Source: Peribolospora baueri (lineage: Eukaryota > Basidiomycota > Peribolosporomycetes > Peribolosporales > Peribolosporaceae). From it: a stretch of DNA of 64,000 bases. Shown here piece after piece: positions 15,734 to 30,603 of the stretch. The first letter of the stretch is position 1. Each line of letters starts with the position of its first letter. The DNA lies in assembly GCA_029717555.1 (NCBI GenBank), contig JAMDHS010000021.1:1-64000 (forward strand), written 5' to 3'. A program made the position numbers and the translations under genes. The notes beneath the pieces were generated by a model. It had not been told where the DNA came from, did no database searches, and saw only the letters and a list, made by a program, of their open reading frames with translations.

Positions 15734-16974
15734 TTAAACGAGGCGGCGGAAGATGCGGGGGGCGGCGCAGTTGTCGACGCAGTGAAGGAGATGAACTGAC
15801 GGTGGGCAAGATGACGACAGCACGGTAGAGGACACGAAAAAAAGAAAAGCAAAGAGGCAGAGATGTTGGACAGTCGGCAAACGGAGGGTACGGATGCTTG
15901 GAAAGACCCGGAACAAATACGTAGAGCACTCACAGCTATCATGGACGCACCCGCCCAGTTGAGCATGGAATGGACAGGCGGACAGATAAGGAAGGAGAAG
16001 GTGAGCACAAGGATAAGCACTTATTGTGAGAGGCATTCGTGTTCAAGATGCCCGATACTCGTGCCACGGTTCAGCAAGCATGCGACCGGACATATGGTTT
16101 CTGCTGGTACGAGAGCGTGTGCCCTTACCGAAGGCGGAGAGAGACGAAAGGAAAGGCATTCCGGCCCACCCTGCCGGATCCCACCTAACATGGCACACAG
16201 CACGCTAACCCGAGGCCGAAGAGACGCCCGAATACTCACAGTTCCTCAACGCAGTCCTCACCCTTGAAGCCACGACCCTCCTCAATACGCTTTTCGCATT
16301 CCTCGAAGTGGTGCTTGACGGAGGCGCAAGCCTTGGAGTTTTCGCATTCTTGGGTGGCAGTGGAAAAGGCCGTCGAGAGTGCAGCAGGGGCACAAACATT
16401 AAGGGAAAGAAGCGAAAGTATTTGAGCTGACGATAACTCCACGGCCGAGAAACGACGGTACGGTGGAAATTGCTGTCATCGGTTTCGCAAAGGACGTTGT
16501 GCTCGGTCGGACCACATGATCCGCAAAGCCCCCGTCCAGCGACTTTGTGACCAACACATATGACTAGTTGATACTCACCTTCCCTTATGGCGGGGGCGGG
16601 CTGATGCAGAAGACAAATAGCGCACGAAGAAGGAGGCGAAAGGGAAACAGATCAGGGCCGCGCTGAAGAGAGCAGGTCAGACAGCTGGAAGAGAAACCAG
16701 GACGGTCGACACTCACGTCCTCTGGCTCTTCCTCGCCCTCTTCCTCGCCCATCTCCTCCTCACTGCCCCCCAAATCGGCGCCCTTCTCTCCTCCGTTGCC
16801 GCCGCCGTCCGCACTCACTCTCTCCCACGATTCGCTGTCCTCCCCCTCCTTCTCATCGTCCGCGTGGGCAACGGGAAGAACATCGAAGACGAAAGTGGAG
16901 AAGGGGGCGAAAACGGAGTCAGTGTGCGTGACCACGTCACCGGCCGCGCTGTCACTGGAGCTGTTGCTGTGCAT
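15734..16974 (-). CDS. QCR6: Ubiquinol-cytochrome c reductase subunit 6 (acidic hinge protein)
   Basis: Subunit of respiratory complex III on the intermembrane-space side, helping cytochrome c docking and cytochrome c1 stability. Exons: 16974-16717, 16600-16579, 16348-16240, 15935-15934 (two bases), 15795-15734; 150 residues. The N-terminus carries a long acidic run (GGSEEEMGEEEGEEEPED), the hinge. The conserved C-terminal helical hairpin follows: ECENSKACASVKHHFEECEK, RGFKGEDCVEEL, FHLLHCVDNCAAPRIFRRLV, with its paired cysteines. Exon 3 ends in phase 2 (CT) and the last exon starts TT CAT, so an exon of length 2 modulo 3 must lie between them. CT at 15935-15934, preceded by tag and followed by gtgagt, gives VEELFHLLHC without gain or loss against the yeast pattern VEEFFHLQH (from memory). 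The identity is firm; the microexon is inferred. Confidence 0.9.
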
Positions 16975-28059: not shown

Positions 28060-29877
28060 TCACCGCACTCTATTGAGCACCTTGTCCGTCAACTGCTCCA
28101 ACGCCACTCTCGCCTCAGACTCAGGGAGGATCTGCAGCGCCTCTCGTGCGAACGAGGCATGCTGAGAGGCCAGTTCGGCGGTGCGTGAGAGCCCCGTTGA
28201 TCGCGAGACGAGGTCGCGCGCCTGGAAGTGAAAATGAGCGAGGTACACAGAGGGCCAAGAGGACGGCATGAGATGGGAGAAGATGAACGGAGGTCGTGAG
28301 CGAGCGAGTCGCCATTAATCACCGTCACCATTGTAACCAATATAGGACGTCGCGATGCAGACTTACCCTCTCAACGTCCCCTTCGCCGGAAAACTTTCTA
28401 GAGATCATCTCTCCCATCTCCGGGTACTCCTCCCACGCATAAAGGGCGGGAGCAGTGGCAAGCCCTAGTCTCAGGTCGGCGCCTTGAGAAGGCTTGCCAA
28501 AGGAAGTGCTCGTGACGGAAAAGTCGAGGAGATCGTCAACGAGCTGACCATGCGATGACAAAGATTGTCAGCCAAAGAAAAATAGAAGAAACCGTCACGC
28601 GATGGGAAAAAAGCCTGAGCGGGTTAAGTGCACGTTACAAGCTCCGTGCTCACCTGAAACGCAATGCCAAGATTCCGACCGTATCCATACGCCGCATCCT
28701 TGACTTTCTCGCCATCCTCCCACCCTTGCCTGAGACCACAGCCACCCAAGATGGCAGCCGCCCTGGCAGATTTCCCTATCAAGCTGGCCGTCTTCAGGTA
28801 CGTCTTCTGCATGTAGTGTTCAAAGATCTCCCTCGTGGGCCCGCTCCTATTAGCGCCCTCCGATCCCGCCTCCCTGGTACCGTTCCAGAACGTGGCAAAA
28901 GAGCTCCGGTTCGGTTTAGGGTTAGCAGACGCCTTAAGTTGCATCACCTCCCCCTCAACGAGATTGGCGATCACTGTTGCCAACAGTTCCACCACCTCGT
29001 TGCTCCCCAGTCGACTCAGCGCGACGGACGCCCGGCCGAGGAGGAAGTCGCCACCGAGGATGGAAAGCTTGTTCCCGAACGCGGCAGGGGCCGAAGGTTG
29101 GCCTCTCCGTTGTTCAGAGGCATCAATCACGTCGTCGTGAAGTAGCGAGGCCACGTGGATCATCTCTGTGATCTCGGCGAGACGCCGCTGGGTGGGCAAG
29201 ATCGGGGTTTGGGAATTGAGGAGTGAGGATGAAGAGGATGAGGAATCGGCGGCGGAGAGTCGTAATCGTCGTCGCTCCTCATCGTGAGGGTTGTAATCGT
29301 TGAGGACGTCCGCAGGGCTCAGGGACTCGTCTACGCCGCCGCCCCATTCATCGCCCGTTCCACTACGTCCCATCGCATATCCGTCATCCACCGCTCTGCT
29401 TCCACTCCTCAATACCTCCTGCCACTGTGGACTGATACCATTGATAGCCTGGCTGATGAGAAGCACAATCAGCGGCCGAATTTGCTTGCCCTCCGCATGG
29501 AAATAGTACTTTGCGATCGTGTCCAGAGAAGGGTGGCCGGAGCCAAGGAGGGAGCGCACGTTGTCTCGGAGAGAGGAAAGCTCCTTGCCGACAAGCTTGA
29601 GGGGGTCGATAGCACCAAACGAAGATGAGGAAGAGGAAACTTGGCCAGAGACTACGGAAGACGCTGCCTTGACGGCTGCCGCCCAGCCCGAGCTGTGTCG
29701 CTTGAAGACGCTGGTGGACGCCGCCTTGGCCGGGTGAGCACAAGGACGAGAAGCAAGTGCCGCCGCGGAAGACGGATAGGCCGGCCGTCTTCCAGGTGCC
29801 CTAGAGGCAGACGACAGGGCAAATCCAATGCCACTGACGGCACTGGCGTGAAGACGACCGGAGGAGGCGGCCGCCAT
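28060..29877 (-). CDS. COQ1: Long-chain trans-polyprenyl diphosphate synthase for ubiquinone
   Basis: Makes the isoprenoid tail of coenzyme Q in the mitochondrial matrix. Three exons: 29877-28654, 28543-28367, 28221-28060; all phase 0; 520 residues, slightly longer than the yeast enzyme. The N-terminus is Ala/Ser/Arg-rich, a mitochondrial presequence. Motifs: HAEGKQIRPLIVLL, first Asp-rich motif MIHVASLLHDDVIDAS, GNKLSILGGDFLLGRA, EGEVMQLK, YLKTASLIGKSARAA, and the second Asp-rich motif GIAFQLVDDLLDF, which crosses the first junction (CAG|CTC). An insertion of about 60 residues between the IRPLIVLL block and the first DDxxD is Ser-rich and acidic. The chain length (hexa- to decaprenyl) cannot be read from sequence. 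Confidence 0.95.
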
Positions 29878-30603
29878 GGTGCTCGTCGTGGTGGACTCGC
29901 GAGCGATGTGAGCGGTTCAGGTCTTCCGTCTATCGTCCTTCGCAGTGATCGGACCGATTCTTCTCGCGCGCTCCGAGTACCGCAGCCTGGAACGAGTCGC
30001 ACAAGCCGGAGCAGATCCCTTATGTCATTTGCTCACGTGACCTTTTTGTTCCCATCTCTTAAATATAAGGTCACTGGACATCATTCCGTCAGTCGGCAAG
30101 CGTTTAGAACGAGCATCGACTGGCTTGCATGCTGTGCTGGGAAGCTTCGCTTTCATGTCGGGCTTGCGTCCTTATCAGACCGGCGTCCTATGCTTGCATT
30201 GTGCACGGTACCAGCTGACCTCATAGGGCGCTCGACTGAAGAGGGCCCGGCTCCGCCCTTGCTCGGGTATTCTAATTTAGGAAGGCCTGGTCAGGGCTCC
30301 TCCACCTCTCCTACCGGTCTTCGGTCGCTGTTACCTGTTCTCGCACCCGCTCTTCCTCGTCATGGAGTTGATGCTCGCTCACGTTTTTCGATTTTCGTGA
30401 AGAAGACGCATCTCGCTGCCTTGAGCTCGAGTTACAGTAGGCCCGGTCGCGCTCCCGGTCAATAACGCTCGCCGTCGAAGAGGTGAGTCCCTGTCCTCAA
30501 AGAATTGGCACACATATTGAGTCGACTCGAACTGCGTTGATGAGCGTCTTCATGACTGGCCAAGGTCACTTCGCCTCTTCCCGCCCCAAGGCCGCACGCG
30601 CCC
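29878..30603. promoter_or_regulatory. Divergent region COQ1 / F-box gene, with TCACGTGA
   Basis: A 726 bp spacer between divergent starts. TCACGTGA at 30033-30040 is a full palindromic E-box about 155 bp upstream of the COQ1 ATG, a position suited to a Cbf1-like factor. The eight-base palindrome is rarer by chance than the six-base core but one copy in 64 kb is not surprising. Confidence 0.3.

What the first reader, a model, noticed from the sequence alone, without database searches (positions are those of the whole stretch)
15934..15935. Two-nucleotide exon in QCR6
Seen: exon ending ...VEE CT is in phase 2, and the last exon begins TT CAT CTC in the only frame that gives HLLHCVDNCAAPRIF, so two bases (modulo 3) are missing. 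In the 440 bp between them I found one place by eye where a two-base unit ending in T sits between AG and GT on the coding strand: tag-CT-gtgagt, with ctcaac, a good branch-site match, about 20 bases upstream. It restores VEELFHLLHC with no gap against the yeast protein. The unit plus donor (CTgtgagt) copies the end of the preceding exon, which hints at origin by duplication of a splice donor or at re-splicing.
Basis: partly seen in the sequence, partly recalled or inferred. Interest (0 to 1): 0.82.

Follow-up and report, generated by a model that had tools for sequence, protein, structure and literature searches.

The report
Two-base exon in fungal QCR6
A fungal gene for a respiratory-chain protein appears to need an exon only two bases long to stay in frame; exons this tiny are rare but already known, and no RNA evidence was available here to prove this one.

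Summary
On the minus strand QCR6 (Pfam UCR_hinge) has exons 16974-16717, 16600-16579, 16348-16240 and 15795-15734. Between ...VEE-CT and TT-HLLHC two bases are missing. The 444-nt interval holds one AG-NN-G[T/C]: tag-CT-gtgagt at 15935-15934. Inserting CT gives equal spans over 63 of 65 UCR_hinge positions at 95.6 bits, against 54.0 for the direct join. The donor is the commonest of ten hand-built introns. The acceptor is the only one of 13 AGs in the interval to pass a branch/pyrimidine test, but that test was written after seeing the site, and the real last-exon acceptor fails it. Shuffles reach the combination at 0.0002.

Family rigidity disfavours it; only RNA can exclude it. A GA-AG intron would give the same protein.

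A 2-nt exon is the best reading (0.8), probably spliced in two sequential steps. It is a new member of a known kind: exons down to 1 nt are reported in Cryptococcus, Fusarium and plants. Origin by duplication is not supported.

The parts
16717..16974 (-). QCR6 exon 1, N-terminal and acidic region
   Evidence: ATG to GAC|gtgagt; its join to exon 2 rests on frame and splice sites only
16579..16600 (-). QCR6 exon 2, 22 nt, itself a microexon
   Evidence: cag|CCC...GAAG|gtgagt; joins in frame to ...PAPAIREEC, inside the UCR_hinge match
16240..16348 (-). QCR6 exon 3, ends GAGGAACT, phase 2
   Evidence: aag|AATGCG...GAACT|gtgagt; its residues match UCR_hinge
15936..16239 (-). intron A, 304 nt, gtgagt...tag
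   Evidence: CTCAC at 16005-16001, then 16000-15965 with 30 of 36 pyrimidines, CTCAAC at 15963-15958
15934..15935 (-). proposed two-nucleotide exon CT
   Evidence: only AG-NN-G[T/C] in the 444-nt interval; restores Leu-Phe and the family match
15796..15933 (-). intron B, 138 nt, gtgagt...cag; 138 = 3 x 46 and stop-free in the frame of the last exon
   Evidence: branch-like CCAAC starting at 15869 and CCGAC at 15877, neither a perfect yUnAy; last 70 nt 77% pyrimidine
15734..15795 (-). QCR6 last exon, TT-HLLHCVDNCAAPRIFRRLV-stop

Best explanation
The nuclear QCR6 gene (complex III hinge subunit) of this fungus carries a two-nucleotide exon, CT, at 15935-15934. Two GT-AG introns of 304 and 138 nt flank it and join GAACT + CT + TTCAT into Val-Glu-Glu-Leu-Phe-His. 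Two bases are unlikely to let both introns be recognised at once, so the introns are probably removed one after the other by intron definition: removal of intron A leaves a complete donor (GAACTCT|gtgagt), or removal of intron B leaves a complete acceptor (tag|CTTTCAT). Shown: frame, motif, uniqueness of the site, family fit. Inferred: use in vivo, constitutive inclusion, and the order of removal.
For: Unique site in 444 nt. 95.6 bits over UCR_hinge positions 2-64 with CT, against 54.0 direct join, 54.4 truncation, 60.1 for the upstream phase-compatible donor, 86.8 and 86.5 for 5-nt and 11-nt exons, 71.2 in two pieces for the retained intron B. CT + TT gives Phe at a position invariant in a four-sequence alignment. 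gtgagt is the donor of 6 of 10 hand-built introns here, 3 gtgagc, 1 gtgggt; for 8 of the 10 the joined protein matches Pfam across the join, QCR6 intron 2 lies inside the match, QCR6 intron 1 was not so tested. Only 1 of 13 AGs in or at the end of the interval passes the acceptor test, and it is the only place in the window where a passing acceptor is followed after 2 nt by GTRAGT. Of 43 stop-free in-frame single internal exons (at least 40 nt from either end), 3 have a GTRNG donor: this one and two, of 56 and 86 nt, that would insert 18 and 28 residues. A single intron of 444 nt would exceed the longest of the ten, 230 nt.
Against: No transcript and no orthologous gene: none found in viral contigs or genome contigs, neither of which is built to hold fungi, and no genome is held for the window. 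Intron A at 304 nt is itself longer than all ten (median 92.5). Of the ten acceptors 9 are cag and 1 aag, none tag; none of the ten donors follows an exon ending in CT. The real last-exon acceptor fails the acceptor test, so that test is imperfect. The motif that let 15936 pass best was CTTAT 77 nt upstream, farther than the nearest motif of any of the nine hand-built introns that have one, though CTTAT at 50 nt is like three of them. Removing intron A alone gives an open frame.
Confidence: 0.8

Rival explanations
1. One intron only (16239-15936). The last exon starts at 15935 and runs unbroken to the stop, adding 46 residues between VEEL and HLLHC.
For: Splice dinucleotides canonical; 15933-15796 is 138 nt and stop-free in the right frame. 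It needs only one unusual thing, an insert.
Against: Breaks the gapless motif and replaces the invariant Phe by Val; UCR_hinge falls to 71.2 bits in two pieces. Of the 34 PDB sequences the largest span beyond the query is 7 residues. The segment begins with gtgagt, is pyrimidine-rich (25 of 833 long-ORF windows reach its last-70-nt value) and ends in cag exactly at the conserved block. 9.2% of fungal GT-AG introns are 3n and stop-free (PMC7072748), and shuffled copies of this segment are stop-free in 0.44, so openness is ordinary. The coding score does not help: -0.81 for the segment, -1.62 for the true last exon.
Confidence: 0.07
2. One intron with a non-canonical GA-AG pair (GAACTGT|GA...AG) or a TC acceptor, giving L-F or L-V.
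For: GA-AG gives the identical protein; the TC acceptor version still scores 92.8.
Against: All splice pairs other than GT-AG, GC-AG and AT-AC together are 0.257% in annotated fungal genomes (PMC7072748); it leaves the tag-CT-gtgagt site unexplained.
Confidence: 0.03
3. Assembly or sequencing error of one or two bases at a junction.
For: No reads available (no call could test it); cannot be excluded.
Against: Both junctions are clean splice sites and both flanks are in frame and conserved right up to them; the internal site would then be chance.
Confidence: 0.05
4. Upstream donor AAGG|gtgagg joined directly to the last exon (GFK-V-HLLHC), or a defective gene.
For: Phase fits.
Against: Deletes GEDCVEELF, in which E, D, C, E, E and F are invariant in alignment A1; 60.1 bits.
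Confidence: 0.02

Closest known systems
Single-nucleotide exon of Fusarium CYP621A (PMC12940212; parts 1 and 2 of 3 read)
   Same: Fungal nuclear gene; exon found because phases did not join inside a rigid conserved motif; AG and GT flanks; unusually long interval
   Different: 1 nt not 2; 20 orthologues and RNA reads support it; protein is a P450
1-nt microexons of plant APC11 and VPS55 (PMC4674806, PMC8831610; passages read)
   Same: Ultra-small exon; GTRAGT donor in VPS55; sequential intron removal proposed for APC11
   Different: 1 nt, plants, experimentally verified and conserved
Exons as small as 1 bp in Cryptococcus neoformans (PMC3990503; passages read)
   Same: Fungus with very small exons reported from an RNA-seq-based annotation
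   Different: The passages name no sizes other than 1 bp and no QCR6 case
Stwintrons (abstract starts in the listing; a find in PMC5639578 returned only a reference-list passage)
   Same: Fungal complex intervening sequence removed in two steps
   Different: Here both introns have complete splice sites and two bases are kept
Recursive splicing ratchet points (PMC8605326; passages read)
   Same: Acceptor and donor almost touching, stepwise removal
   Different: A ratchet point leaves no bases; here 2 nt must stay in the mRNA

Membership tests
Ultra-small (1-2 nt) exon | Flanked by AG and GT of full introns | tested here: met
   tag-CT-gtgagt; introns of 304 and 138 nt
Ultra-small (1-2 nt) exon | Needed to restore frame and a conserved motif | tested here: met
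   95.6 against 54.0 bits
Ultra-small (1-2 nt) exon | Present in transcripts | not testable with these tools
   No RNA data held
Ultra-small (1-2 nt) exon | Conserved among orthologues | not testable with these tools
   No fungal genome collection available; scans confirmed no relative
Stwintron | A splice element of the outer intron is split by an inner intron and nothing is kept between | tested here: not met
   Both donors complete; direct join is out of frame
Zero-nucleotide recursive splice site | AG directly followed by GT | tested here: not met
   Two bases lie between
QCR6 / UCR_hinge protein | Match to Pfam PF02320 above its cut-off | tested here: met
   95.6 bits, cut-off 27.2

The most novel reading that the evidence does not exclude
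A 2-nt exon in a respiratory gene that depends on obligatory stepwise splicing and acts as a switch: with both introns removed the normal hinge protein is made; with intron B kept, an in-frame form with 46 extra residues, many of them hydrophobic; with intron A kept, a stop right after VEEL.
Probability: 0.1. Interest if true: 0.65.

Novelty: new member of a known kind. Interest (0 to 1): 0.42.

Why it matters
A confirmed 2-nt exon in a named fungal gene would be a compact natural test of how a spliceosome handles an exon too short to be recognised as a unit. It also shows how gene finders can fail on short conserved genes: the missing exon would be read as a frameshift or pseudogene. My search of the held papers for five phrasings of a two-nucleotide exon found one paper, whose passage is a deletion table and unrelated. 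[quoted passage not shown]

Tried and rejected
Other internal exons: 43 stop-free in-frame single internal exons between AG and G[T/C], at least 40 nt from either end, were listed; the 5-nt and 11-nt versions score lower and their donors (gtaccc, gtgctc) are poor. Longer ones would insert residues where the solved relatives show none. Two or more small exons in a row were not enumerated.

AGNNGTGAGT occurs at seven places in the window, both strands, this one included. I examined one of the other six, minus strand 50402: it is not a 2-nt exon but the end of a 33-nt exon of a SKN1/KRE6-like gene. So the bare motif does give false positives.

Duplication origin: continuous identity of the two CTgtgagt sites ends with the 8 bases.

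Orthologue searches: viral contigs (125 pattern matches, none confirmed) and genome contigs (63, none confirmed). Species not identified; that it is a fungus is my inference from the gene content.

A self-trained coding model was too weak to judge intron B. The first run of its intron finder returned nothing and a looser run gave 39 non-overlapping candidates; the ten-intron set was built by hand reading, not from that list. Trial joins for a tyrosine phosphatase, an Rrn11-like and an aminotransferase gene were not resolved or not tested against Pfam, and were left out of the set.

Papers: (QCR6 with intron and basidiomycete) found none; finds in PMC5639578, PMC11590231 and PMC8022950 gave nothing of use; the searches were read as listings.

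Full report
What is there. The minus strand of 16974-15734 encodes a UCR_hinge (QCR6) protein. Exons are 16974-16717 (258 nt), 16600-16579 (22 nt), 16348-16240 (109 nt) and 15795-15734 (62 nt), with donors gtgagt after each of the first three and acceptors cag, aag and cag. Exon 3 ends in phase 2 (GTT GAG GAA CT) and the last exon must be read TT CAT CTC. Joined directly the frame is lost; with two more bases it is kept.

The site. The interval between them is 444 nt. Such a motif without a donor requirement is expected by chance (0.84 of 20,000 dinucleotide shuffles), but with GTRAGT it is not (0.0023). In real sequence that motif is commoner, 27 of 1,142 overlapping tiles. Adding an acceptor test (pyrimidine before AG, branch-like motif 12-90 nt upstream, no AG between, at least 60% pyrimidine) gives 0.0002 of 10,000 shuffles and 0 of 1,142 tiles. 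This test was written after the site was known. It is imperfect: 231 of 8,238 AGs in the window pass, and the true last-exon acceptor does not. If in-frame exons of 2-59 nt are allowed, the chance rises to 0.0054 (GTRAGT) or 0.093 (GTRNGY) of shuffles, and to 3 or 21 of 1,142 tiles.

Protein evidence. With CT the domain aligns to PF02320 positions 2-64 with equal spans at 95.6 bits; direct join 54.0, truncation 54.4, upstream donor 60.1, 5-nt exon 86.8, 11-nt exon 86.5, TC acceptor 92.8, retained intron B 71.2 in two pieces. In a four-sequence alignment E, D, C, E, E, then F, H, L and H around the junction are invariant, and the CT exon is what completes the Phe codon. Of the 34 PDB sequences matched (one of which, 6okd, is a transferrin-receptor binding peptide and not a hinge protein) the largest span beyond the query is 7 residues, so a 46-residue insert has no precedent among them.

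Splice signals of this genome. Ten introns from four hand-built genes (QCR6 introns 1 and 2, five of a SKN1/KRE6-like gene, two of COX16, one of a polyprenyl synthetase) have donors gtgagt (6), gtgagc (3), gtgggt (1), acceptors cag (9) and aag (1), and lengths of 74-230 nt, median 92.5. The joined proteins of the last three genes match Pfam across the joins. The proposed exon thus has the commonest donor, but its tag acceptor and the 304 nt of intron A have no equal among the ten. Intron A carries CTCAC at 16005-16001 followed by 36 nt with 30 pyrimidines, then CTCAAC at 15963-15958, and tag is the next AG. Its nearest perfect yUnAy ends 50 nt before the intron end, as in three of the ten introns at 49-50. 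Intron B has branch-like CCAAC and CCGAC, not perfect matches, and a long pyrimidine tract.

If intron A alone is spliced, 15933-15796 (138 nt) is open in the frame of the last exon. This is a canonical gene model with a 46-residue insert. I rate it at 0.07, because it breaks a rigid motif, loses the invariant Phe, looks like an intron at both ends, and because 9.2% of fungal GT-AG introns are 3n and stop-free anyway (PMC7072748, passages). My coding score cannot judge it. GA-AG would give the same protein as the 2-nt exon and can only be told apart by RNA; minor splice pairs together make up 0.257% in fungi.

Mechanism. Shown: sequence, frame, uniqueness. Inferred: the two introns are removed in turn by intron definition. 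Either order leaves a complete splice site: GAACTCT|gtgagt after intron A, tag|CTTTCAT after intron B. The same proposal was made for the 1-nt exon of APC11 (PMC4674806, passages).

Origin. The shared CTgtgagt is donor consensus plus two bases, and the flanks show no extended match, so duplication is not supported. A simpler inferred history is two introns gained two bases apart in CTCTTT, or rescue of a lost base by a cryptic exon as suggested for CYP621A (PMC12940212).

Novelty. Exons of 1 nt are reported in plants (PMC4674806, PMC8831610: passages), in Fusarium CYP621A with reads (PMC12940212, parts 1 and 2 of 3), and exons as small as 1 bp in Cryptococcus neoformans (PMC3990503, passages). 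Phanerochaete P450 genes have exons down to 6 bp (PMC1184071, passages). So this is a new member of a known kind, predicted and not proven.

Noticed in passing
window 16579-16600, minus strand: QCR6 also has a 22-nt exon, so two of its five proposed exons are microexons.
   Followed up: partly
window 50888-49781, minus strand: Part of a SKN1/KRE6-like beta-glucan synthesis gene with at least five introns and a 33-nt exon (50433-50401), whose end mimics an AG-NN-gtgagt unit.
   Followed up: yes
window 54025-53915, minus strand: This COX16 intron begins gtgagc after CAG, and the exon after it begins GTGAGC after its own cag acceptor: the exon starts with a donor-like sequence, a possible recursive or alternative splice point.
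   Followed up: no
window 15796-15933, minus strand: Intron B is a stop-free intron of 3n length; its retention would make an in-frame longer QCR6.
   Followed up: partly
window 28441-29916, minus strand: Polyprenyl synthetase gene with an intron at 28653-28544.
   Followed up: partly
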